Origin: Mycobacterium sp. PS03-16
GTDB lineage: Bacteria; Actinomycetota; Actinomycetes; Mycobacteriales; Mycobacteriaceae
Direction of reading: 5' to 3'
Length of the DNA stretch: 64,000 nucleotides
Assembly: GCF_004570325.1 (NCBI RefSeq)
Contig: NZ_SPQO01000007.1
Span: forward strand, 153,595-217,594
The position numbers were made by a program, and so were the translations under genes. This document shows, one piece after another, positions 27,469 through 39,094 of the stretch; positions within the stretch are counted from its first letter, which is position 1; every line of letters begins with the position of its first letter. The notes below the pieces were generated by a model. The model was given only the letters and a program-made list of their open reading frames with translations. It ran no database searches and had not been told where the DNA came from.

Positions 27469-28446
27469 CTACCCGCCGGTGCCGCTCCGGGCGTAGGCGA
27501 GCAGGGCCGCGGCGGCGGATTCGCGGACCTTGTCGGCGAGCGCCTGCGGTTCGAGCACCCGCACCGCCGAACCGAAGCCGAGGACGAAGCGGGCCATCCA
27601 GGCGTCGGAGGCGTAGGTCATGGCCGCTTCGCAGGCGCCGTCGGGCAGTTCGCGCACCACGCGCAGGGGGTAATAGTCGAACATCCAGGACGCCGACGGG
27701 TCGATCAGCAGGGTCGCCGACGGCAGAGCCGGGTCGGCGTCGAACAGCGAGGTGTCCGGACCCGCCTCGACCGCCGGCGGCGGGGGTGCCGCGGGTTCGT
27801 CGAGCACGCGGGCGTCGACGATGCGGTCGAAGCGGAACAGGCGCACGCCTTCGGCCGAACGACACCACGCCTCGAGGTAGCTGTGGTCGGCGACCAGCAC
27901 GACCCGGATGGGGTCGACCGTCCGGCTGGTCAGCACGTCGTGGGAGGCCGAGTAGTACTCGATGGTCAAGGCGCGGGCGTTGCGCACGGCCGTGCGCACG
28001 GCCGCGGCGGCCTCGCTCTCGACCGGGGCGGGTTCCTCGACGGCGGTGACGGCGTCGCTGATGTCGTGGCCGGCGGCGCCGGCGGCCTGCTCGATCTTGG
28101 CGATGGCGCTGCGGGCGGCCTCGGGGTCGACCATGCCGGGCACGTCGACCAGGGCCCGCAGCGCGACCAGGACGCCGGTGGCCTCGGGCGAGGTGAGGCG
28201 CAGCGGATGGTCGATGCCCGCGGAGAACGTGACCTCGATGGTGTCGCCGGAGAATTCGAAGTCGATGAGGTCGCCGGGGCCGTAGCCGGGCAGGCCGCAC
28301 ATCCACAGCTGGTCGAGGTCGGTCCGGAGCTGGTCGACGCTGACGCCGAGGTCGGAGGCCGCCTCGGTGTAGGTGATCCGCGGGTTGGCCTGGAAGTACG
28401 GAACCATGTTGAGCAGCCGGACCAGGCGGGTGGAGACGGCGCTCAT
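27469..28446 (-). CDS. pafC: WYL-domain transcriptional regulator PafC
   Basis: A 325-residue partner of PafB. The N-terminal winged helix is in [20 protein letters not shown] and a WYL-type domain follows (about 135-215), with a C-terminal WCX-like extension. The PafBC heterodimer is the main LexA-independent activator of the mycobacterial DNA-damage response. The start overlaps pafB by 4 bp (ATGA). Confidence 0.93.
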
Positions 28447-29429
28447 GCGGTCACCTCCGCCTGCGCGGTGAGGCGGGCGATGACGTCGTCGCGCAGCGAC
28501 TCGGGCTCCAGCGCGATGGCGTCGGCGCCGTAGCTGGCGACCTCGCGGGCCAGCCGGTCGAACATGCCGATTTCTACGGTGACGACGTCGCCGGCGCGGC
28601 CGCCGAGGGTCATGGGGCCTTCGACGACGGCCTGGCGGCGCAGCGCGGTGGCGCGGCCCTCGGCGACCCAGACGCGGGCCTGGGTACCGGTGGGCCATTC
28701 GGCGACGGCGCGGTGCACCAGGTCTTTGAGGTCGACGTCCTCGGGTTTGCGGACGGCGCCCGGGGGGCCGATGACAGTGACGTCGTCGGCGATGCGGGAC
28801 AGCCGGAATGTGCGGGGCGCGGCGCGGTCGCGGTCGTGGCCGACGAGGTACCAGCGGCCGCGGTGGGTGACGACGCCCCACGGTTCGACGGTGCGGGTCT
28901 TGTAGGGGTCGGTGCGGGATTGGCGGTGGCCGAACTGGACGGCCTGGCCGGCGTCGATGGCGTCGAGCAGGGTGCGCAGCGTCGCCTCGGAGCCGCGGAC
29001 GCCGGGCAGGGTCGCCGTGGAGATGGCGACGCTGTCACCGGCGTCGACGTCGACGCCGGCGGCGCGGAGTTTGAGCAGGGCACCCTGCGTGGCGGTGATG
29101 AGTTCGGGCGACTCCCACAGCTGGGTGGCGACAGCGACGGCGGCGGCCTCGTCGGCGGTGAGCTCGACGGCGGGCAGCGCGTAGGCGTCGCGGTTGATGC
29201 GGTAGCCCTCGGTGGGGTCGAACTGGGAGACGCGGCCGGTTTCCAGCGGGATGCCGAGGTCGCGCAGTTCGTTCTTGTCGCGCTCGAACATGCGGGAGAA
29301 GGCCTCGTCGCTGGGACTGTCGGCGTAGCCGGCGACGACCTGGCGGATGCGGTCGGCGGTGATGAAGGTGCGCGTCGACAGCAGTGCGATGACCAGGTTC
29401 ATCAGCCGTTCGACTTTGGAGGTGGCCAC
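28443..29429 (-). CDS. pafB: WYL-domain transcriptional regulator PafB
   Basis: A 328-residue protein: N-terminal helix-turn-helix (MATSKVERLMNLVIALLST, then a RIRQVV winged segment), WYL domain (about 140-210, GHRQSRTDPYKTRTVEPWGV and GRWYLVGHDRDR), and C-terminal WCX domain. With PafC it senses damage, likely through single-stranded DNA, and activates repair genes. It normally follows pafA in the same operon; here 8.2 kb of other genes separate them, so pafBC must have its own promoter in 29430-29649 or beyond. Confidence 0.94.
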   Translation of the reverse strand: MATSKVERLMNLVIALLSTRTFITADRIRQVVAGYADSPSDEAFSRMFERDKNELRDLGIPLETGRVSQFDPTEGYRINRDAYALPAVELTADEAAAVAVATQLWESPELITATQGALLKLRAAGVDVDAGDSVAISTATLPGVRGSEATLRTLLDAIDAGQAVQFGHRQSRTDPYKTRTVEPWGVVTHRGRWYLVGHDRDRAAPRTFRLSRIADDVTVIGPPGAVRKPEDVDLKDLVHRAVAEWPTGTQARVWVAEGRATALRRQAVVEGPMTLGGRAGDVVTVEIGMFDRLAREVASYGADAIALEPESLRDDVIARLTAQAEVTA

Positions 29430-29649
29430 TCCTACGAGCTTAAGGCGTCGGAGGTGTGGGGCGACGCTTCTGTGGGTGCGGCGTGGTCTTCGAAGTTCAG
29501 CCAGCGAGCCGGGAGTCCCGCCGTCGGGCCGCTATCAAGGTCAGTGCGACGCGTTCGACATTGCCGGTTGCCATAGTCCCCGGTCGGGTCGGATTCGTGA
29601 CACCGACGTCATCGGGTCTGGGAGATACTGAGCAAATGGGGTTGCGGGG

Positions 29650-31959
29650 GTGGGTGGCGCGGCAGTGAGTGCAGTCGGCGGCTTCTATGCGAACTGGAAC
29701 AACGCGCGGCAGACATTCGGCCAGGGCAGCCCGCAGTCGGGCGCGGACTTCGACAACAGTTCGCAGCTCACCGGGCTCGGCACCGGGCTGTCGTCGGCGG
29801 CGCCGGGCTCGAAGTGGTCCGGGGCGGCCGCGTCGAATTACGACAAGGCCAACACCGACCACCAAGCCGTCTTCACCCAGCTCGCCCAGCTCGACCAGAA
29901 GATCGCCCAGCAGGTCGACAACTCCGCTCAGGTGGTGGCGACCGGCCGGCAGAATCTCAACAGCGTCAAGCGATGGGTGACCGACGCAGTCAACAGCCTC
30001 CCGCCCGGCAAGCAGCGGCACCAGATGGAGCTGCAGATCGCCAAAGCCGGACTTGGGCGGCTCACCGAAGTTGTCGAGCAGACCAACAAGCAGTCCAACA
30101 CCATCGGTCAGAACATCGGCGCCATCACCTCGGAATACGACTCGCTCAAGGAGACCATCCGATTCGCCGGCGACATCAAGGAGGACAAAGGCGACGGCGA
30201 AGCAGAAGCGCTGGGCAACGAAGACGAGAAGAAAGAAGAAGGGGAGTTCCAAGAGCGCGCTAAGCAGGATGTTCAAGACGCCTTATCTGGCGATGCGCAG
30301 GCCGCTGGTCGTGTTGACGCGGTGCTCGACTCCATTTGGCCGGGTCAGCCGCTGAGCCCCGAGCAGGGCTCGTACCTCAGTCAGATGCAGGCCCAGCAAC
30401 ACGGCATGAGCGTGGATCGCCTCCGCGAAGTCGAGCAACGACTGGGCGACCACAAGGACATCATCGGCGACTCGTGGCAGTTGGTGAGCGACCCGGACGT
30501 CACCTTCCCCAAGACTGAGACGGAGGTAGGCGCCCTAGACGACCCCAGCGTGCCGGTTAAGGGCGGATTTGACCAGCTACCGAAAGATGTTCGTGACACC
30601 TTAGAAGCGCCCGGCTCGGCTGGCGCGCCAAGGCTTGAGCAGATCGCAGCGATCGTGAAAGACGGCGACGACCGCTTCCAAACAAGCACCGAGATTGATC
30701 GCGGGTTGCTGCGAAAAACCGCGGACATCATGGAGTCTCCCGGCTGGCAACAGAGCGCTGAGGAGGCCACCCTCCCTGACGACCGGCGCCCTCAGGTGCT
30801 CGACCCACTGGTGTCGAATGTCTTCGACGCGGTGGCACCAGACCACCAAGCTATTCACAGTGCGATTGCTGGCGGAAGCTCGGGTATTGAAGGCGTTGAT
30901 CCCGACGAATTCATGGAAGGCATCACTCACCGCGCATGGATAGACAACGGGGAGGCGGCGGGGAACCTGTTCGAGTGGACTGCGAGCACTACTGGCCCCG
31001 ACGGACAGATCGCCGCGGAGACAGCGCAAAAGTATGCGACCTACCTCGCGAATCACGGTCCGGAGCTTCTTAATCTCCCCGGCAACCAGCAGATCGGTGA
31101 ACTCAATCCTGAGCTCGTGAAGTCGTTCGCAACAGGCTTGCAACCGTACCAACTCGCCATGGTCGGGGAAGGCGTCGAGCCTCACGGCTTCCAGCCACTC
31201 GAAGATCTCGGCAGCGATATGCAAGTGACCAAGCAGCTTTTCTCCGTGATCGATTCGAATGAGGACGCCGCAAGAGAGTTCAATAAGGCGGCCTACAGCC
31301 ACGTCCTCGGTCTGCAGCACTCCTTCGGAGATCTCGCCGCGGAGAACCCCGACCTGCGCACGACCGACAGTCGATTGGACGACCTCAGTAGTTCGGCCCG
31401 ATTGTTGGGCGCGATCAACGGCGGCCAACACCTCGAATTAGCGTCGAGCATTCAAAACGGTCGTATGAACGCGGAACAGGCCTTCTCAGCGGCAGAAGCC
31501 TCGTACAACTGGAAGAAAGAGATAATCGATCAGGTGGCGTCTTACGCACCCGGCGGAGACTTGATCACCGGCCAGGCGGACAACATCCTTCTGGGACCCC
31601 CGCCCGAGAGGACGGACTTCAAGATTGATCCTCAAGCCGGTTACGTAACCGATATCGGCCTGAGCGCCACGCAACAGGACGCGCAGCACAGCGCCACGAA
31701 CGTGCAGTACGAGGTAGCAAGCCGATTCGCTGATCCGAATTCCGGCTACATCGACCCGCGGTTCTTCGACGAGAGAACGGGCGCGCTGAAGCCCCCTAAC
31801 ACGATCAGCCCCGCTGACTGGAGCGCCTATGACACACAACTCGCCAACTATCTGGCGACCACCCATCCGGAGTTGAACGCATCAGTCACCAACTATCGCA
31901 CCACATATCTGATGCTTCATGGGCTCCCTTCGATCCCTCAGATTCAACCGGGCGGATAA
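29650..31959 (+). CDS. Large WXG-bearing ESX-associated protein with C-terminal helical repeat region (TPR_23-like)
   Basis: A 769-residue protein, glycine-rich only at its very N-terminus. Residues 1-180 resemble type VII secretion substrates: a WSG turn at about 56-58 (GSKWSGAAASNYDKA) between long helices, then a coiled-coil-like stretch (about 75-175). Residues 175-205 are very acidic and lysine-rich (KEDKGDGEAEALGNEDEKKEE). Residues about 210-760 are mostly helical and end in a 320-residue region that matches the downstream lipoprotein. Newer databases call similar mycobacterial proteins TPR-repeat-region proteins; that assignment is from memory. No signal peptide or catalytic motif is visible. 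GTG 29665 is an alternative start. The lipoprotein gene follows after 4 bp. Confidence 0.75.
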   Translation: MGGAAVSAVGGFYANWNNARQTFGQGSPQSGADFDNSSQLTGLGTGLSSAAPGSKWSGAAASNYDKANTDHQAVFTQLAQLDQKIAQQVDNSAQVVATGRQNLNSVKRWVTDAVNSLPPGKQRHQMELQIAKAGLGRLTEVVEQTNKQSNTIGQNIGAITSEYDSLKETIRFAGDIKEDKGDGEAEALGNEDEKKEEGEFQERAKQDVQDALSGDAQAAGRVDAVLDSIWPGQPLSPEQGSYLSQMQAQQHGMSVDRLREVEQRLGDHKDIIGDSWQLVSDPDVTFPKTETEVGALDDPSVPVKGGFDQLPKDVRDTLEAPGSAGAPRLEQIAAIVKDGDDRFQTSTEIDRGLLRKTADIMESPGWQQSAEEATLPDDRRPQVLDPLVSNVFDAVAPDHQAIHSAIAGGSSGIEGVDPDEFMEGITHRAWIDNGEAAGNLFEWTASTTGPDGQIAAETAQKYATYLANHGPELLNLPGNQQIGELNPELVKSFATGLQPYQLAMVGEGVEPHGFQPLEDLGSDMQVTKQLFSVIDSNEDAAREFNKAAYSHVLGLQHSFGDLAAENPDLRTTDSRLDDLSSSARLLGAINGGQHLELASSIQNGRMNAEQAFSAAEASYNWKKEIIDQVASYAPGGDLITGQADNILLGPPPERTDFKIDPQAGYVTDIGLSATQQDAQHSATNVQYEVASRFADPNSGYIDPRFFDERTGALKPPNTISPADWSAYDTQLANYLATTHPELNASVTNYRTTYLMLHGLPSIPQIQPGG

Positions 31960-31963
31960 GCAG

Positions 31964-32905
31964 ATGAGCCGGTCATCGATAATCCGGGGCGCTCGGATCC
32001 TGCTCGCCTTTATGGCGTCGCTAATCCTCGTTACTTCCTGCGCACCTGAGCTGCCGGCGCTACCGGCGGGGGACGACCCAGCGGCGGTGGCGGAAGTCGT
32101 TACCGGAGAAGACGGCGCCTCGTTCCTCGAGCGGACTTGCAGCTACGAATGGCCTGAGGACGGCGCTGAACCAGCAGGTCTGTTCACGTGGATTCGTCCC
32201 GCCGTCGACGGTGCGGATCAGCCTTCCGCGCAAGCGGCCGGAAAGATCGCACATTCGGTGGCTGAGTTCTTCGCGGAGCATCCGGATGCAACGCGTGACT
32301 GCGAAGGTCGCAACCCGGCTCTGTTCGAGTCGCTCGCTGCTGCACTCATTTCCTACCAAGGAGCCATGGTCGGAGATCCCGCGGGCACAACGGGTTTCGC
32401 ACCGCTGGATGCGCCCGACAGTGACATGCCGCGAACCGCCTCATTGTTCTCGACGATGAACTCGGCAGGTCCGGCAGGCCAAGGCTTCGTCGCCGAAGCA
32501 CGGCAGCGCGTTGACCGTTACGAAGAAGCCTTCGCAGATCAGGCCGCAGCCGACCCCGCAGCTCCCATCACCGGCTCCGTGCGCGGCGAAACGAAATTCG
32601 CCGGCCGCCTGCTGGGATTGATCGCTCGAGTAGAGCAAGACGGTGAGGGCGGCCGTGTCTCGCTATCAGGCCCGAAGAGTCAGCTGGAATACGCGGTCGT
32701 GTCCCGGATGGTCCGCGGCAGTGATCCTCGGATCAGCGCCCAGTTCTTCGATCCACAAGGAACGCTGATCTCGCCCGGACGCGTCGACAACGCGCAGTCG
32801 AGTCTGTATGCAGCCCAACTCTCCAATTTCCTGTCGGCTTATCCAGCCGTCAGTGCAGCGATCGCCGACTTCAATGACAATTATCAACGAATCGCTAATG
32901 CGTGA
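31964..32905 (+). CDS. Lipoprotein homologous to the C-terminus of the preceding large protein
   Basis: A 313-residue lipoprotein: basic start, hydrophobic core ARILLAFMASLILV and lipobox LVTSC with Cys26. Two blocks align with the 769-residue protein. Lipoprotein 117-180 matches its residues 486-549 (shared pattern NPxL..YQxAMVG..GFxPL..SDM..LFS), and 236-308 matches 680-755 (shared FFD..G.L..P and YxxQLxNFL/NYL). The stretch of the large protein from about 595 to 680 has no counterpart. It would be displayed outside the membrane. ATG 31964 is used because it gives a proper signal peptide and near-contiguous coupling with the upstream stop. A partner, decoy or immunity role is only inference. 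Confidence 0.8.
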   Translation: MSRSSIIRGARILLAFMASLILVTSCAPELPALPAGDDPAAVAEVVTGEDGASFLERTCSYEWPEDGAEPAGLFTWIRPAVDGADQPSAQAAGKIAHSVAEFFAEHPDATRDCEGRNPALFESLAAALISYQGAMVGDPAGTTGFAPLDAPDSDMPRTASLFSTMNSAGPAGQGFVAEARQRVDRYEEAFADQAAADPAAPITGSVRGETKFAGRLLGLIARVEQDGEGGRVSLSGPKSQLEYAVVSRMVRGSDPRISAQFFDPQGTLISPGRVDNAQSSLYAAQLSNFLSAYPAVSAAIADFNDNYQRIANA

Positions 32906-33072
32906 ACCGCTGCAATTGACCGTCACACCAGTGCGCGACACATTGCGTCTGCAGGATGGCCATACAGACTCGGGACCTTCCTACGAGCGCTGATCCTCCC
33001 GCTTGGCTCCTTCAAGCAGACAGACGGACGCCCGCTTGCCTAGGTGGACGGCCGGACACGCTGCGTTAGAGG

Positions 33073-35388
33073 CTAGTGCTTTACCGCAATAGCGTCGCCG
33101 CACATGACGCTGACGTGCTGCCAGTAGACCCAGTCGGCGATAGCGGCGCGCTGTAGTTCCGCGTCGGTCGCCGTCTGCGCCCGGTGCACCGCCAGCACTT
33201 GGGCGTGGTCAGCGAAAATAACCATGGCCGCGAGATGCGCGCCGCCCCGATCAGGTGCCGTACTCATCATCGGCTTCATCACGTCGAACCACAGCGACAT
33301 CGACTTGTCTTCAGGAGCATTGGCATCGACCGGCGCAGGCGGAAGCAGATCACCAAGCGATGCGTCGCTGACCGAGTTCAGCTGTTTCACCGCGTTCGGG
33401 GCGACGATCTCAAGCCTCGAGCGGCCGGCGATGTCACCCTTCTCCGGAATGTCGTCGGGCTGCAGGATGACCCGCGCAGCGCCCGGGTCGAACCCGTCGA
33501 ACTGGTCGGCGGTCGCCACCACCGCACGCAGCGCCGTGTCGTGATGCTGTGCCCAGCCATGTAAGGCCAGCATCGGGAACGTCGCCCACTTCGCCCGCTC
33601 CTCCAGGGGAATCGACTCATCAGCGCTGACCATCTTCACCTGCTCGGGCAGCTTCACCCCGTCCGGGATGTAGCCAATGCCGTAGCTGTTCGCGACAAGG
33701 AGCGTCCCCTCCTTCGTCACGCCGGTCAGCCAGAAGAACCCGAAATCTATCGAGCGATACGCGTTCAACGCGGCACCGATCCGGCGAGCAACCTGCACCG
33801 GATCACCGCTGGACTGACGTCGCATCGAACCGGCAATGGCATCCCGTTCCGCCCGCGCGGCCGATACCGGCACCGGCGCGGGTGCACCGGCAACAGACGC
33901 GGCGTTCGGTGCGGCAGGCGCCACGGGCGGTGGCATCGCCGAAGCCGGCGCGACCGGTGCGGCCGGTGACGGCGTCGGAGGCGGCCCCAATGGCATGCCC
34001 GGCGGCATGGCCGGAGCACCACCTGACATGGGAGGACCGGCGGGAGTTGCCGACGGCGGTGTCGACGGCGGCGTGACCGGTGTGCTCGCTGCACTGGTAC
34101 TCACTGGAGCGGATGCCGTTGTGGCTGCCGTGTCGACCGGCGGAGGGGCGACGGGCGCCGGCACCGCCGCAGCGGCCGGCTGAATCGCTGGCCCGATGTT
34201 CGAAAGTGCCTCGGCGGTAGCTTGAATGGGCGGCGGTGTGCCATAGCCGCTTGAAGGGCCGCCTGCGGCGCTGGCCTGCGATGGGTCGAAACCAGTATCC
34301 ACGGCCGAGCCGTCGCCTCCAGAGGCTGGACTGTCACCGAACAACCCGTCCAACGAGCTCCCCCCAGATGAGGCACCCCCTCCGGAGCTGAGGCCTCCTG
34401 CTGAGATCCCTGCACTGCCCATGGTGGGAGCGCTCGTGGAGCCGCTTGCTAGCGGCGACGTAGGCGCACTCGGGGCGTTACCTGCGGTTGTCGACGGCAC
34501 ACTGGGCACAGTCGGTGCTTGCGGCCGTGGAGCGCCGCCGCCTCCGCCGGTCGGGGCAGGGTAAGCCGGACCTGCGACCGGCGCTCCAACTTGCTGCACA
34601 TCGGTCGGTTTCGGCACAAAACTCGGCGGAGGAGGCGCTACCTCTGGTACGGGGGCCGGCACAGGGGCTTCCGGTGGGGCGATATCCATCGGCTTATGCG
34701 AAGCGGGTGTAGCCGTTGGCGCTTGGACCGGCGATGGGCCCGAGGTCGGCGACGACACTTTTGTCATGTCCAGCGGCTTGGCAGTGAACGTTGCCAGCGG
34801 ATTGCCGTCACCGGGGGCGTCGCCATTGTTCTCCGAGCTTTTGATTTCCGTCTCATCAAAGGGCACCTTTGGCGAAGTCGGTTTCCCGCCGAAGCGCTCA
34901 GCAAGGCCATTTACGGCGTTGAGATTCTCGAGGTATCTGCCATTTACAAACGATCTGACAGCGGCTGTCGCGTCGAGGTTCTTGGCGGCCGCCTCGCTTT
35001 CGAGCCGAGATATCTGATCTTGAGCTGCCTGTACATTCTCGGCAATGCCATCTTTGAGCGACGAGATTCCGTTCGCAGCATCTGCGCACCAAGTGACCGC
35101 ATCTCGGAGTCGCTGATCATATGACCGCATCGATTGGGCATGCTCGTTAACTTCAGCAGCGGCTTTGATCGAAGCATTCCCGTTCCATACGAAGGGGCCA
35201 TTAAAGATCGCGGCGCTATGGTTCGCGAATGTATCCCGGGCGCCTTCCAAGCTTGATCGGATCTGCTCCAAGGTGTTGGCGCGCTCGGTGAAGACGCTTT
35301 CGTCAACCTCCGGCCAGGCACCGGAACCTGTCATCTCACCCGCGTACGGCCCTATGGGCTTCGGCTTGCCTGCGCCTCCGCCTATCAC
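33073..35388 (-). CDS. EspK-like ESX-1-associated protein
   Basis: A 771-residue protein in three parts. Residues 1-150 form a helical WXG-like domain: the entry PIGPYAGEMTGSGAWPEVDE and FVWNGNASIKAA (WNG turn at 68-70) match the start of M. tuberculosis EspK (Rv3879c). Residues about 180-506 are a Pro/Ala/Ser/Gly-rich linker. Residues 507-771 are a folded domain strongly like the EspK C-terminus (VSAARAERDA, FGFFWLTGVTKEG, LLVANSYGIGYIPDG, PDDIPEKGDIAGRSRLE, LWFDVMKPM). EspK is linked to the ESX-1 substrate EspB and its export. The GTG start overlaps the upstream membrane-protein stop by 4 bp (GTGA). Confidence 0.85.
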   Translation of the reverse strand: MIGGGAGKPKPIGPYAGEMTGSGAWPEVDESVFTERANTLEQIRSSLEGARDTFANHSAAIFNGPFVWNGNASIKAAAEVNEHAQSMRSYDQRLRDAVTWCADAANGISSLKDGIAENVQAAQDQISRLESEAAAKNLDATAAVRSFVNGRYLENLNAVNGLAERFGGKPTSPKVPFDETEIKSSENNGDAPGDGNPLATFTAKPLDMTKVSSPTSGPSPVQAPTATPASHKPMDIAPPEAPVPAPVPEVAPPPPSFVPKPTDVQQVGAPVAGPAYPAPTGGGGGAPRPQAPTVPSVPSTTAGNAPSAPTSPLASGSTSAPTMGSAGISAGGLSSGGGASSGGSSLDGLFGDSPASGGDGSAVDTGFDPSQASAAGGPSSGYGTPPPIQATAEALSNIGPAIQPAAAAVPAPVAPPPVDTAATTASAPVSTSAASTPVTPPSTPPSATPAGPPMSGGAPAMPPGMPLGPPPTPSPAAPVAPASAMPPPVAPAAPNAASVAGAPAPVPVSAARAERDAIAGSMRRQSSGDPVQVARRIGAALNAYRSIDFGFFWLTGVTKEGTLLVANSYGIGYIPDGVKLPEQVKMVSADESIPLEERAKWATFPMLALHGWAQHHDTALRAVVATADQFDGFDPGAARVILQPDDIPEKGDIAGRSRLEIVAPNAVKQLNSVSDASLGDLLPPAPVDANAPEDKSMSLWFDVMKPMMSTAPDRGGAHLAAMVIFADHAQVLAVHRAQTATDAELQRAAIADWVYWQHVSVMCGDAIAVKH

Positions 35389-36593
35389 TCAGACGCCTGA
35401 CACGCGGAGAGTAAGAAATTCACAAGGTAGGTGGCCGCCGAAGAAACGAAATTGTCGGCGCTGGAGTAGTTGGGAAGTCCTGCAGCGTACGCTGCGCGAT
35501 AACGGGATGCTAGATAGGCCATATCTTCAAATGTTGCGTTCCCACTTCTTCCCCCCAACTCTTGCAGCCTTTGGGCACTTGCCCGCATCACGGGTACAGT
35601 GTCTTCAATCGTTTTGCGCTGCTCCGGAGACCATTGCGCGGCCGAGAGGTTTGAGTCGATCGCTTGCCACCCTACGACCTTCGACGAGAAAGCCTCAGCC
35701 TCGACTTCCCACGCAGCGCAAACTCCGATAGGAGACTCAAGGAAAATCTCGCGGTCAGCAGCTTCACTAGGAGGCCGTGCGACTTCGGTAGGCGTCGGAG
35801 ACGGCTCGACTAACGGGGCCAGCGCTTCCGCGGAATTAAAATCAATTGCGGAACAGATCATAGCCAGAGCCGAGGAAAGACTATCTACTACTACAGCGAG
35901 TTTTCCGTCGGTCGGTACGTAATCGGGGAGACGCGTTGTGAAGTCCTCGGCGTAGGCGATAAATTGTTCGTAGAGCTCGCGCATCACTCGATGCGGTGTC
36001 GCCTTCGTCAGGTTGACCGCTGCATCCGCAGCCGTCGCCATCGATTCGCCAACAACTTCGTACATCTGCCGCTGTTCGACATTCCAACCAGCCGCCGGCA
36101 CTGAATCGTCTCGTTCCGCCCAACCTGCCGCGGCTGCCGAATCGCTGTATGACCGGCTGATCCGTCCCCACGCATCACACGTCGGATCTTCCGTAATGAT
36201 GTTGACCGGCCCCGTGTCATCCGCGCTTGCGTACTCCGACGCCTGATCGTCGCCCGGCCCCGCCGGCGAATTGCCATCCGGATCCGGCCGCGTCACCAAG
36301 ACAGTGATGGTCACCGCCAGCGCGACGGCCAGCAACACCACCAGCCCGCCGAGGATCCACTTGCCCTTACCGCCCTTGCCCGGCGGCGGGCCGGACGGCG
36401 GACCACCCCACTGCGGTTGCTGCGGCGGCGGCCCCCACGGCGGCGGACCCCCGAACTGCCCACTGGCATCACCCGCCGGCGGCTGCCCACCCCACGACGG
36501 CTGCGCTCCCCACTGCGGCTGCCCACCATGCGGTGGCTGACCGCCATACGGAGGCTGTCCGCCGTACGGGTTGGGAGGGGGAGGCATCGTCAT
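35385..36593 (-). CDS. Pro/Gly-rich single-pass membrane protein with duplicated two-cysteine domain
   Basis: A 402-residue protein I do not recognise. Residues 1-75 are a disordered Pro/Gly/Gln-rich tail (PYGGQPPYGGQP units), 79-100 a membrane helix (WILGGLVVLLAVALAVTITV), and the rest should lie outside. The outside part contains two similar units, about 139-250 and 292-399. Each starts CxAW, has W.xEQR in its second helix, LPxY before its last helix, and ends with a second cysteine (Cys139/Cys247 and Cys292/Cys398), so each may be closed by a disulfide. A Pro/Thr linker (about 260-280) joins them. A ribosome site (AAAGG, 7 bases) supports ATG 36593. It is the middle gene of the EspC-like/EspK-like operon. 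Confidence 0.75.
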   Translation of the reverse strand: MTMPPPPNPYGGQPPYGGQPPHGGQPQWGAQPSWGGQPPAGDASGQFGGPPPWGPPPQQPQWGGPPSGPPPGKGGKGKWILGGLVVLLAVALAVTITVLVTRPDPDGNSPAGPGDDQASEYASADDTGPVNIITEDPTCDAWGRISRSYSDSAAAAGWAERDDSVPAAGWNVEQRQMYEVVGESMATAADAAVNLTKATPHRVMRELYEQFIAYAEDFTTRLPDYVPTDGKLAVVVDSLSSALAMICSAIDFNSAEALAPLVEPSPTPTEVARPPSEAADREIFLESPIGVCAAWEVEAEAFSSKVVGWQAIDSNLSAAQWSPEQRKTIEDTVPVMRASAQRLQELGGRSGNATFEDMAYLASRYRAAYAAGLPNYSSADNFVSSAATYLVNFLLSACQASE

Positions 36594-36624
36594 AAGCGCA
36601 CCTTTGCGTCAGGAACAGTCACTG

Positions 36625-37458
36625 TCACAACAGAATCGACGGGTCGGCCTCTGCGGGTCGCGTCGGCGCCGGCTTCGGCGGAACGGGCACAGCTTCGGGC
36701 GCCTGCTCCACCGGCGGTGTCTCCGGCGCGGCATGTCGCGGCACATACTCGGGTGCTCGCTCGCCGCCGCCATCCCCGGCCGCGGCGCCCTCCGGCGCCC
36801 GCTCCGGCTCCGGCCGTTCGGACCGCTCGTCAGGACGCTCGCGGTCCTCGAGCTCCTCGCGCCGATCCTTGTCGTCCTTGCCGCCCATCTCGCTCCGCTG
36901 ACCCGTCATCTGCCCGATCTGCTGCATTCCGCCCTGGAGACCCTGCATCATCTGCTGCGGAATCGACGCCGCCATCCCGGCGAGCTGCATCGGGATCTGC
37001 GCGGCCTGCTGCGCCATCTGGAGCGGCATGCCCAACATCTGACCCATCTGGCCCATGGCATCCGCACCACCCGCCGCCGGCGCCGCACCGCCGCCCGCCC
37101 CGGCAGCTCCCTCGGCACCGGACGCGCCACCGGAAACCCCGGCACCGGGCGCTCCCGCCCCGTCCAGCTCGTCGAGCGCCTTGCGGATCCGGTCGGCGAT
37201 CTCCTGATCGGTCTGCTCGTACATCCCGGCGGCCCTGATGATGTTCTCCGCCGTCGCCAGCGCTTCGGCCTTGGTCTTGGGCATGCCCTCGATCAGGGGC
37301 TGCTCGATCTCGTTGGTCCGCGCATTGAGTGCCAGCGACAACGCATCGGTGCCCGACGTCACCAGAGGCTGCAGCGGCTCGGGAATCGCCCGCGCGCCCT
37401 CGGCCAGACCATTGCCCCCGTTAGCCAGCTCGCCGGTGTTCACCCTCAGCTCGGTCAT
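36625..37458 (-). CDS. EspC-family type VII secretion protein with Pro/Glu-rich tail
   Basis: A 277-residue protein. Residues 1-98 match the EspC/DUF2580 helical hairpin (MTELRVNTGELANGGNGLAE...), ending with the type VII export motif Y80-x-x-x-D84 in MYEQTDQE. Next come a Gly/Ala stretch, a Met/Gln-rich helix (about 145-205, MGQMGQMLGMPLQMAQQ) and a charged Pro/Glu/Arg tail. EspC-like proteins usually pair with a partner for ESX-1 export. It heads the three-gene leftward operon (31-bp gap to the next gene). ATG 37458 gives a start at the conserved family N-terminus; upstream frame to 37566 looks non-coding. Confidence 0.8.
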   Translation of the reverse strand: MTELRVNTGELANGGNGLAEGARAIPEPLQPLVTSGTDALSLALNARTNEIEQPLIEGMPKTKAEALATAENIIRAAGMYEQTDQEIADRIRKALDELDGAGAPGAGVSGGASGAEGAAGAGGGAAPAAGGADAMGQMGQMLGMPLQMAQQAAQIPMQLAGMAASIPQQMMQGLQGGMQQIGQMTGQRSEMGGKDDKDRREELEDRERPDERSERPEPERAPEGAAAGDGGGERAPEYVPRHAAPETPPVEQAPEAVPVPPKPAPTRPAEADPSILL

Positions 37459-37646
37459 CGACGCCCCCCCATCACCAAGCGCGCGAAGCCTCATCTCCGG
37501 AACACCCAGCAAGTGTGCCGCAGACAAGATCGAACCCCCACCCGCTTCAAGACACGTATCGGCCAACCGTCAACGAATACTCCAGCAAATGCTACCTGAG
37601 CACGGTCCACCCACACTGCACCAAATGTGCAGCCGATCCGGAAGGG

Positions 37647-39005
37647 CTACATGCTGGCGATGAGCCGCTTGACCCGCTCGTCGACCGACCGGAACGGGTC
37701 CTTGCACAGCACCGTGCGCTGCGCCTGATCGTTGAGCTTGAGGTGCACCCAGTCGACCGTGAAGTCGCGCCCGGCCTCCTGGGCGGCGCTGATGAACTCC
37801 CCGCGCAGCTTGGCCCGGGTGGTCTGCGGCGGCGTGTTGACCGCGGCCTCGATCTCCTCGTCGGTGGTGATCCGCGCGGCGAGGCCCTTGCGCTGCAGCA
37901 GGTCGAACACCCCGCGGCCACGCTTGATGTCGTGGTACGCCAGGTCGAGCTGGCTGATCTTCGGGTCGGACAGCTCCATGTCGTAGCGGTCCTGGTAGCG
38001 CTGGAAGAGCTTGCGCTTGATCACCCAGTCGATCTCGGTGTCGACCTTCGCGAAGTCTTGCGATTCCACCGCGTCGAGCTGGCGGCCCCACAGGTCCACC
38101 ACCTGCTCGATCTGCGAGTTCGGCTCCCGCGTCTGCAGGTAGTCGACGGCGCGCGAGTAGTACTCGCGCTGGATGTCGAGCGCGCTGGCCTGCCGGCCGC
38201 CGGCCAGCCGCACCGGACGCCGCCCGGTCAGGTCGTGGCTGACCTCGCGGATCGCGCGGATCGGGTTGTCCAACGAGAAGTCGCGGAACGGCACCCCGGC
38301 CTCGATCATCTCCAGCACCAGCGACGCCGTGCCCACCTTGAGCATCGTGGTGGCCTCGCACATGTTGGAGTCGCCGACGATGACGTGCAGGCGGCGGTAC
38401 TTCTCGGCGTCGGCGTGCGGTTCGTCGCGGGTGTTGATGATCGGGCGCGATCGCGTGGTCGCCGAGGACACGCCCTCCCAGATGTGTTCGGCGCGTTGGC
38501 TCAGGCAGAACGTCGCCGCTTTTGGCGTCTGCAGCACCTTGCCCGCGCCGCAGATCAGCTGGCGGGTGACCAGGAACGGCAGCAGGACGTCGGAGATCCG
38601 GGAGAACTCCCCCGCCCGCACGATCAGGTAGTTCTCGTGGCAGCCGTACGAGTTGCCCGCCGAGTCGGTGTTGTTCTTGAACAGGTAGATGTCGCCGCCG
38701 ATGCCCTCGTCGGCGAGCCGCTGCTCGGCATCGATCAGCAGGTCTTCCAGGACCCGCTCACCGGCCCGGTCGTGGGTGACCAACTGGATCAGGTTGTCGC
38801 ATTCGGCGGTGGCGTACTCGGGGTGCGAACCGACGTCGAGATACAGCCGCGCGCCGTTGCGCAGGAAGACGTTCGAACTGCGGCCCCACGACACCACGCG
38901 CCGGAACAGATAGCGGGCAACCTCGTCCGGACTGAGCCGGCGATGACCATGGAACGTGCAGGTCACGCCGAATTCGGTCTCGATGCCCATGATTCGTCGC
39001 TGCAC
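37647..39005 (-). CDS. pafA: Pup-protein ligase PafA
   Basis: The enzyme that attaches prokaryotic ubiquitin-like protein (Pup) to lysines of substrates for proteasomal degradation. The 452-residue product is collinear with M. tuberculosis Rv2097c: the start [18 protein letters not shown], the ATP/Mg region [44 protein letters not shown] and C-terminal [12 protein letters not shown]. The carboxylate-amine ligase-like active site appears intact. GTG 39005 is used since it gives the exact known length; 39077 is an in-frame alternative. It no longer adjoins pafB. A terminator for the IclR gene sits about 70 bases upstream of this start. Confidence 0.96.
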
Positions 39006-39072
39006 GTCATCGAGCTTACGGGTTCGTCGCGGCGTACGGCGCGCAACGGGTGCGCCGGGCGTTGCGCCCATT

Positions 39073-39094
39073 GACACCGCGACGGGGCGGTGTC
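39073..39094 (-). terminator. Stem-loop ending the choline operon
   Basis: A perfect 8-bp stem GACACCGC/GCGGTGTC (39073-39080 with 39087-39094) and a 6-base loop lie 3 bases after the stop of the IclR gene on the minus strand. It probably ends the eight-gene choline operon and separates it from pafA. Confidence 0.65.

What the first reader, a model, noticed from the sequence alone, without database searches (positions are those of the whole stretch)
29430..37646. Type VII secretion-associated island splits the pafABC locus
pafA and pafB are neighbours in the mycobacteria I know, and pafABC acts as one unit. Here 8.2 kb with five ESX-1-like genes in two convergent arms lies between them. No ESX core genes are present. 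This couples, at least in location, a secretion-client cassette with the proteasome/DNA-damage locus, and I know of no description of it.
Basis: partly seen in the sequence, partly recalled or inferred. Interest (0 to 1): 0.9.

Follow-up and report, generated by a model that had tools for sequence, protein, structure and literature searches.

The report
ESX-1 helper genes inside pafABC
In this mycobacterium, five genes of kinds linked to the ESX-1 secretion machine sit between the Pup-ligase gene pafA and the DNA-damage regulator genes pafBC; they were likely copied there in separate steps from other places in mycobacterial genomes and probably still serve ESX-1, while pafBC is predicted to run from a promoter of its own.

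Summary
Confirmed: 29430-37646 separates pafB from pafA and holds five ESX-1-related genes in two convergent arms, with no ESX core gene. The arrangement is not ancestral, and arm 1 is no assembly join. pafA and pafB lie under 300 bp apart in 59 of 82 loci compared; seven carry arm 1 (espJ-TM-espK), one of them a one-contig genome (inferred M. doricum). In M. setense and G021 this module sits inside ESX-1 between eccD1 and espL; here and in three other genomes with arm 1 that slot is closed. Its last gene matches the solved EspK domain (E 1e-84) and keeps reported EspB-contact residues. Arm 2 (EspA-like plus lipoprotein) came separately: it carries the 3' end of a gene that precedes EspA at another locus of this genome (75% over 174 bp), and in relative G002 an EspA of another branch entered the same gap in the other orientation. 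The gap is a recurrent landing site (16 of 82 hold other inserts), probably because pafB has a promoter-like -10 box of its own (92 of 99 distinct upstreams). The link to proteasome and DNA damage is positional; no sign of shared regulation was found. New variant of a known kind: ESX-1 accessory genes living away from ESX-1.

The parts
27469..28446 (-). pafC (C-terminal part of ORF 27469-28881)
   Evidence: HTH_PafC, WYL, WCX in Pfam
28443..29429 (-). pafB
   Evidence: WYL and WCX in Pfam; 70-92% identical relatives in the 80 named loci kept
29437..29442 (-). TAAGCT, predicted -10 box of a leaderless pafBC promoter, 7 bases before the pafB GTG
   Evidence: TANNNT starting at -16..-11 in 92 of 99 distinct pafB upstreams, 7 of 7 with cassette; 0-2 of 99 in five control windows
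29530..29664 (+). carried-over segment: relic of 25 codons at the 3' end of a ~602-aa gene (29531-29605) plus the EspA upstream region of 'site D'
   Evidence: 75.3% over 174 bp (window 29530-29700) to own contig C78 (L188), E 3e-31; protein-level relic 64% over 25 aa, 30.8-31.2 bits for the two best of five queries, against a best of 23.9 in 50 base shuffles
29665..31959 (+). EspA/EspE-family protein with TPR_23 (ORF 29650-31959; database gene aa), WxG motif
   Evidence: PF18879 80.3 bits, PF23275 168 bits; 126 proteins at E<=0.001, own included; WSG
31919..32905 (+). lipoprotein (likely start 31964, lipobox ending VTSC, read by eye) resembling EspA's TPR_23 region
   Evidence: PF23275 20.6 bits, below its cut-off; 31% to EspA residues 413-589; 37-42% to the gene after EspA at site D in L188, L191, L192
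33073..35388 (-). EspK: WxG-like N-terminal domain, Pro-rich linker, C-terminal EspK domain
   Evidence: 8ako_B EspK E 1e-84 over 528-768; PF25547 23.1 bits, below cut-off; WNG, F701/K705/S709
35385..36593 (-). Pro-rich, single-TM protein, helical in its modelled part (PF27060 precomputed for its relatives); overlaps the espK start by 4 bases. The database gene call is shorter (318 aa); most listed relatives are 360-400 aa
   Evidence: 748 proteins at E<=0.001, best 120 listed; AlphaFold2 pLDDT 79.9, pTM 0.72; no PDB fold match at E<=0.001
36625..37458 (-). EspJ-like (277 aa), N-terminal part EspC/PE-like with YEQTD
   Evidence: position before TM-espK in all seven cassette genomes; YxxxD; 35% over 69 aa to the ESX-1-located EspJ of G043; PF10824 only 13.8 bits, below cut-off
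37583..37596 (-). GGTAGCATTTGCTG, promoter-like block of the espJ-TM-espK module
   Evidence: with up to 1 mismatch: 12 hits (9 distinct places) in 2.68 Mb of held loci, all before an espJ; 40-51 bp behind pafA in seven of seven
37647..39077 (-). pafA (Pup ligase)
   Evidence: TIGR03686 792.6 bits

Best explanation
Two separate ESX-1-accessory modules, espJ-TM-espK and an EspA-like gene with a lipoprotein gene, lie in the pafA-pafB gap, where they likely arrived in separate copy-and-insert events, and they would work in trans for the ESX-1 machine encoded elsewhere in the genome. Shown by sequence: the modules, their presence or absence in relatives, the closed eccD1-espL slot in the own ESX-1 fragment, the carried-over gene end beside EspA, and the conserved boxes before espJ and before pafB. 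Inferred: the espJ-TM-espK module was copied out of an ESX-1 locus (its place in M. setense and G021) and the ESX-1 copy was later lost. EspK is predicted to bind EspB and hold it ready for ESX-1; the pair is reported to interact in M. tuberculosis, M. marinum and M. smegmatis. EspJ (YxxxD) and EspA (WxG) would be exported partners. Also inferred: the gap tolerates inserts because pafBC has its own leaderless promoter, so an insert upstream of that box leaves pafBC expression possible while ending or weakening read-through from pafA.
For: Identity: EspK domain E 1e-84 to 8ako_B with the F/K/S contact positions kept (contact positions from passages of PMC9811218); EspA/EspE 80.3 and TPR_23 168 bits. 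Native place: M. setense L100 and G021 L187 carry espJ-TM-espK between eccD1 and espL. Slot closed: 20 bp between the eccD1 and espL ORFs in own L085 and 44 bp in G010 L184, about 5 bp between the matches in G004 L111, about 0.3 kb in G001 L109; also closed in G036 L149, whose module is at site C. Only one convincing EspK in the own genome. Copying: G021 has both an ESX-1 copy and a second copy of the paf type. Next to the paf-type clade stands a group that holds the ESX-1-located copies of G027, G035 and G043 (91/92, midpoint root, rows with missing parts). Separate arrival of arm 2: L003, L009, L010, G010 and G022 have arm 1 without EspA in the gap; own and G002 EspA fall in different starred clades, opposite orientations, and their lipoproteins do not match; relic of the site-D gene end before EspA. 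Portable unit: block before espJ at paf, site B, site C and ESX-1 places. Tolerant site: pafB -10-like box 92 of 99, 16 of 82 gaps with other inserts.
Against: The paf-type espJ-TM-espK forms a clade with a site-C and a G021 copy (100/100) apart from the ESX-1-located M. setense/G021 type, so direct relocation of the present ESX-1 copy is not shown; an old paralogue fits nearly as well. Seven pafAB copies as one clade are rejected (AU p 0.0016, group seen before testing), and species and module trees do not settle one insertion against two. G002 and G022 lack espL/espB beside eccD1 and in G003 no ESX-1 eccD was found, so EspK may have another client there. The window's EspJ matches ESX-1 EspJ of M. 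setense and G021 only at chance level (E 0.03; none at E 1e-4), though that of G043 at 1e-9. No expression or secretion data.
Confidence: 0.66

Rival explanations
1. espJ-TM-espK of the paf type is an old paralogue or horizontally gained copy that never came from the ESX-1 locus of this lineage; the native ESX-1 copy was lost independently.
For: Deep split between the paf-type clade and the ESX-1-located type of M. setense/G021; G021 holds both types; module GC is below the rest of the locus in seven of nine compared (all but L100 and L187); an IS110-type transposase stands next to the site-B module in G019.
Against: Within the group of the window the module tree follows the paf gene tree (G036, then the five cassette genomes), which speaks for vertical descent after entry; no integrase or tRNA seen in the interval; ESX-1-located copies of G027, G035 and G043 stand next to the paf-type clade.
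Confidence: 0.35
2. Ancestral arrangement: pafA and pafB were separated by these genes in the mycobacterial ancestor and most lineages lost them.
For: Two distant paf clades share the module at the same place, with the espJ block 40-51 bp behind pafA in seven of seven.
Against: 59 of 82 gaps under 300 bp across the tree; cassette in 4 of the 79 named loci with both genes and 2 of 30 further relatives; the cassette is confined to two clades.
Confidence: 0.05
3. Assembly join.
For: The EspA arm at this place and orientation was seen in one genome only.
Against: pafA-espJ-TM-espK-pafB is present in six other genomes, one of them a single contig; the window has no N and lies on one 217,594-base contig.
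Confidence: 0.03
4. Functional coupling: the ESX-1 module was recruited into pafABC so that the EspK/EspJ supply follows Pup-ligase or DNA-damage expression.
For: espJ-TM-espK is co-directional with pafA and pafB in all seven genomes; in M. smegmatis pafABC is co-transcribed (PMC5656591 passages).
Against: Conserved promoter-like block before espJ that also occurs at other sites; no recalled PafBC-type motif in the interval with up to 2 mismatches; other, unrelated inserts use the same gap; in the window EspA runs against pafBC.
Confidence: 0.1

Closest known systems
ESX-1 locus arm eccD1-espJ-espK-espL-espB
   Same: espJ and espK type genes; EspK domain homologous to the solved EspB chaperone domain; same TM gene between them in M. 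setense and G021
   Different: Lies between pafA and pafB; own ESX-1 fragment has eccD1 facing espL with 20 bp between
espACD locus (ESX-1 substrates encoded away from ESX-1; recalled)
   Same: EspA-family gene outside the ESX-1 locus
   Different: No EspC or EspD neighbour; a lipoprotein gene follows; the segment matches a 'site D' where EspA follows a ~602-aa gene (five loci)
ESX-6, partial duplication of ESX-1 in M. marinum (start of abstract in a search listing, PMC13354803)
   Same: ESX-1 genes present at a second chromosomal place
   Different: Here only accessory genes, and the original slot is empty
pafABC operon of mycobacteria (PMC5656591, passages)
   Same: gene order pafA, pafB, pafC, tatA, tatC on one strand (tatA by eye)
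   Different: 8.2 kb inserted between pafA and pafB, against the statement there that all mycobacterial species have the three in one operon

Membership tests
EspK | C-terminal EspK domain | tested here: met
   8ako_B E 1e-84, residues 528-768
EspK | WxG in the N-terminal domain | tested here: met
   WNG at 68; PF25547 only 23.1 bits, below cut-off
EspK | EspB-contact residues F659, K663, S667 (M. tuberculosis numbering; three of the 14 reported EspK contacts) | tested here: met
   F701, K705, S709; the other contacts were not compared
EspK | gene beside espL/espB in ESX-1 | tested here: not met
   lies at pafA-pafB; eccD1 faces espL directly
EspK | binds EspB and keeps it monomeric | not testable with these tools
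   reported for M. tuberculosis in PMC9811218 (abstract, passages)
EspJ | YxxxD/E motif and EspC/PE-like N-terminal fold | tested here: inconclusive
   YEQTD at 80; PF10824 13.8 bits, below cut-off
EspJ | sequence match to ESX-1-located EspJ | tested here: inconclusive
   of four ESX-1-located EspJ compared: 35% over 69 aa to G043 (E 1e-9), chance level to M. setense and G021 (E 0.03), none to G027; 41% to the site-B EspJ
EspA/EspE family | PF18879 and PF23275 above cut-off | tested here: met
   80.3 and 168 bits, cut-offs 27 and 27
espACD locus | EspC and EspD neighbours (recalled) | tested here: not met
   neighbours are a lipoprotein gene and espK
complete ESX (type VII) locus | EccB-E and MycP core genes | tested here: not met
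   none in the interval; EccD copies on C70, C48 and C64
pafABC operon | pafA directly followed by pafB | tested here: not met
   gap of 8221 between the matches in the window

The most novel reading that the evidence does not exclude
In these species the EspB chaperone EspK has been taken over by the Pup-ligase operon: espJ-TM-espK is read through from pafA, so that ESX-1 (EspB) export rises and falls with the pupylation locus, and the pafA-pafB gap is a landing site that ESX-1 client modules have entered at least twice independently.
Probability: 0.12. Interest if true: 0.85.

Novelty: new variant of a known kind. Interest (0 to 1): 0.55.

Why it matters
A paper on pafBC says that all mycobacterial species have pafA, pafB and pafC in one operon; here that fails in two clades, and the likely reason it can fail is testable (a promoter-like box directly before pafB in most of the loci compared). 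It also shows ESX-1 accessory genes as portable units with their own upstream block, able to be lost from the ESX-1 locus while the machine stays, which bears on how ESX-1 substrates and chaperones are assorted between species. A scan that looks only at ESX-1 loci would wrongly report espJ and espK as missing from these species.

Tried and rejected
Ancestral arrangement and assembly join: rejected for arm 1. One-island import: rejected because the arms have different trees and distributions and arm 2 carries a scar of its own source. A single move of the whole five-gene block out of an ESX-1 locus like that of G021 (same convergent order, L187) was my first reading; the EspA tree, the site-D scar and the unlike lipoproteins spoke against it. 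DNA-damage control by PafBC: a recalled RecA-NDp-like pattern gave 4 matches in the window with 2 mismatches (1.84 expected), none between 29 and 38 kb. Simple sigma-70 and terminator scans gave nothing above shuffles (0 promoter-like sites against 1.2, 1 terminator-like against 4.9). tRNA or known RNA: no tRNA in the window or near the breakpoints in 14 loci scanned, no Rfam match in 28.0-39.5 kb; the tRNA-Cys that a published table lists after EccD in M. doricum appears here as an antisense hit that lies at the start of eccD1 (L184 9409-9506). Fold of the TM protein: no PDB match at E<=0.001. phmmer of EspA and EspJ against solved structures: nothing useful. The second structure prediction was not used. 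In the notebook I first wrote 21 bp for the eccD1-espL gap and 11 methyltransferase-type inserts; the recounts are 20 bp and 10.
Full report
WHAT IS THERE. The interval 29430-37646 begins directly before pafB and ends directly before the pafA stop. Pfam and NCBIfam name the flanks (PafC HTH/WYL, WYL/WCX, TIGR03686 PafA at 792.6 bits). Inside, on the plus strand, are an EspA/EspE-family protein with TPR_23 (80.3 and 168 bits) and a lipoprotein-like gene that resembles its TPR_23 part. On the minus strand, in the direction pafA to pafB, are an EspJ-like gene, a Pro-rich one-TM gene and an EspK-like gene whose start overlaps the TM gene by 4 bases. The EspK call rests on a phmmer match to the solved EspK domain (8ako_B, E 1e-84, residues 528-768). 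Three residues reported as EspB contacts (F659, K663, S667 in M. tuberculosis; passages of PMC9811218) are F701, K705 and S709 here; the other contacts were not compared. EspJ carries YEQTD; EspK and EspA carry WxG; these are the motif classes listed for such substrates in a passage of PMC6107294. No ESX core gene lies in the interval. EccD copies lie on contigs C70, C48 and C64, which by their neighbours, read by eye, look like ESX-1, ESX-3 and ESX-4.

IS IT USUAL. A scan for PafB relatives gave 80 named loci, the best of 280 found; 79 hold both genes. With the window, G010 and G022 added there are 82 rows: 59 with gaps of 12-255 bp, 16 with other inserts (gaps of 381-2661 bp), and 7 with the espJ-TM-espK module. 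Of the 80 named loci four carry the module: L003, L004, L009 and L010. G010 and G022 were added because they carry it. A second set comes from 32 same-genus relatives asked (31 with a match, one of them weak): 30 pafB loci were given, with the module in 2 (G010 and G022 again), pafA within 1.11 kb in 27, and neither within 1.5 kb in 1. Ten of the 16 other inserts are a methyltransferase-type gene on the opposite strand (Pfam run on one). So the gap is usually closed, but it is a recurrent landing site.

WHERE THE FIRST ARM COMES FROM. In M. setense (L100) and in G021 (L187) the three genes stand in the ESX-1 locus between eccD1 and espL. In the window's genome the ESX-1 fragment (C70, 3.3 kb) has the eccD1 and espL ORFs facing each other with 20 bp between. 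The same closed slot is seen in G010 (44 bp), G004 (about 5 bp between matches) and, with about 0.3 kb, G001, all of which carry the module at pafA-pafB. The only convincing EspK of the own genome is the one in the window. In G002 and G022 eccD1 is followed by other genes and espL/espB are not beside it; G022 has a second ESX-1-like locus with an EspK of another branch. In G003 no ESX-1 eccD was found. G005 and G019 have the module at another shared place ('site B'), G036 at a third ('site C') with a closed ESX-1 slot. EspK was found in 23 of 61 relatives including the window's genome, and in none of the 24 outside the genus (loci were given for 30 of the matches).

TREES. In the tree of the three proteins together the seven pafA-pafB modules, the site-C copy and a second copy in G021 form one clade (100/100), apart from the ESX-1-located type of M. 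setense and G021; next to it (91/92, midpoint root) stands a group with the ESX-1-located copies of G027, G035 and G043 (18 rows, some with parts missing). Forcing the seven into one clade is rejected (AU p 0.0016; the group was seen before the test). In the paf gene trees the cassette genomes fall in two clades, five with the window and two with M. moriokaense GAS496. One old insertion with moves and losses, two insertions, or transfer between the clades all remain possible. Copying followed by loss of the ESX-1 copy fits best, because G021 keeps both types.

THE SECOND ARM. Five of the seven module genomes (L003, L009, L010, G010, G022) have no EspA gene in the gap. G002 has one, in the opposite orientation and from a different starred clade of the EspA tree (a quick tree with long branches flagged); its lipoprotein does not match the window's but matches that of the G021 ESX-1 pair (46% over 239 aa). 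The window's genome has another EspA-lipoprotein pair on C78 ('site D', also found in G001, G003, G008 and G022). The 174 bp around the start of EspA in the window match the own site D at 75%, E 3e-31, and include 25 codons at the 3' end of the gene that precedes EspA there (30.8-31.2 bits for the best two of five queries, 24.3-26.6 for the others, against a best of 23.9 in 50 base shuffles). That is a carried-over piece of the source. In the protein tree the window's EspA is not next to the own site-D copy but in the same 30-row clade, so the source was a site-D-type locus, in this lineage or another. In G022 the gap also holds a decayed piece resembling the DUF885 lipoprotein gene that is intact in G002 (the resemblance was read by eye).

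WHY THE GAP TOLERATES INSERTS. Before the pafB start a TANNNT box (TAAGCT or TAAGGT in 59 of 99) stands at a nearly fixed distance in 92 of 99 distinct upstreams, among them all seven with the module; five control windows upstream have it in 0-2 of 99. The seven without it have pafA ending just before pafB: 12-21 bp in the four with a gap from the 82-row set, 11-15 bp in the other three. Five of 111 loci were not counted because the start pattern was not found. This predicts a leaderless pafBC promoter; the box is sequence, the promoter is inference. In M. smegmatis co-transcription of pafABC was shown by RT-PCR (PMC5656591), so read-through exists there as well. In the window the EspA arm runs against pafBC, so read-through would have to cross it. 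Before espJ a block GGTARCATTTGCTG stands 40-51 bp behind the pafA stop in seven of seven (L182 has two extra T) and recurs, exactly or with changes, before espJ at sites B and C and in the ESX-1 of G021; it was not seen before espJ in L100, L113, L120, L125 or L183. Twelve pattern hits in 2.68 Mb (9 distinct places, overlapping loci counted) all lie before an espJ. The module thus seems to bring its own promoter.

WHAT IT DOES. EspK is described as the chaperone that holds EspB monomeric (PMC9811218, abstract and passages). With espB still beside espL in four of the cassette genomes (the window's, at the contig edge, and G001, G004, G010), the simplest reading is that EspK, EspJ, the TM protein and EspA act in trans for ESX-1. 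The TM protein has a confident helical model for its part behind the TM segment (overall pLDDT 79.9, pTM 0.72) without a solved relative. No sign of regulation by DNA damage was found (recalled motif). In this genome Mpa-, Dop-, Pup- and PrcA-like ORFs lie together on another contig (largely by eye).

LITERATURE. Seven searches of the held library listed no title or abstract start that describes ESX genes between pafA and pafB. PMC5656591 and PMC8223512 (passages) state that pafA and pafBC share an operon in mycobacteria. A table in PMC11206017 (passages) lists the M. doricum ESX-1 with EccD followed by a tRNA-Cys and a DNA-binding protein and no EspJ/EspK, which agrees with L184. PMC4791881 and PMC6107294 were seen in passages only.

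VERDICT. Real, not ancestral, and composite; arm 1 is not an artefact, and arm 2 awaits a second genome or long reads. A new variant of a known kind: ESX-1 accessory genes living away from ESX-1. The unusual points are that the home slot is empty and that the landing site is the pafABC operon.

Noticed in passing
26 loci among L005-L075, directly upstream of pafA: 26 of 74 loci with at least 3 kb upstream of pafA carry a divergent Abhydrolase_8-type gene (532 aa in L181, there paired with a 92-aa DUF7162 gene) within 4 kb of pafA; it is absent in the window, L179 and L180.
   Followed up: partly
pafA-pafB gap in L019, L021, L023-L029, L035, L043, L047, L079: The gap holds a methyltransferase-type gene in ten loci, and other genes (a lipoprotein in L019, genes that look AbiEi-like by eye in L029 and L079) elsewhere.
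   Followed up: partly
L194 (G022 contig C7): A second ESX-1-like locus with its own eccD, EspK, EspL-like and EspB-like genes; its EccD is 58% identical to the window genome's eccD1.
   Followed up: no
L187 (G021 ESX-1): Between eccD1 and espL stand espJ-TM-espK and, convergent, lipoprotein and EspA: the same layout as in the window at a different place, although the EspA and lipoprotein genes are of different types. Repeated pairing of the two modules may point to a functional partnership.
   Followed up: partly
G000 contig C52, L090 5009-12798: Mpa-, Dop-, Pup- and PrcA-like ORFs lie together on a contig other than that of pafA (apart from the Dop-type match, read by eye).
   Followed up: partly
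L193 8459-9988 (own contig C63): An EspA/EspE-type N-terminus fused to an Abhydrolase_8 domain.
   Followed up: no
L003 8903-9727: A DUF222/HNH piece stands between espK and pafB in Mycobacterium sp. IS-1496.
   Followed up: no
L195 10634-11896: An IS110-type transposase directly behind espK at site B in G019.
   Followed up: no
L068 7349-9900: 2.7 kb of other genes separate pafA and pafB in M. rhizamassiliense.
   Followed up: no
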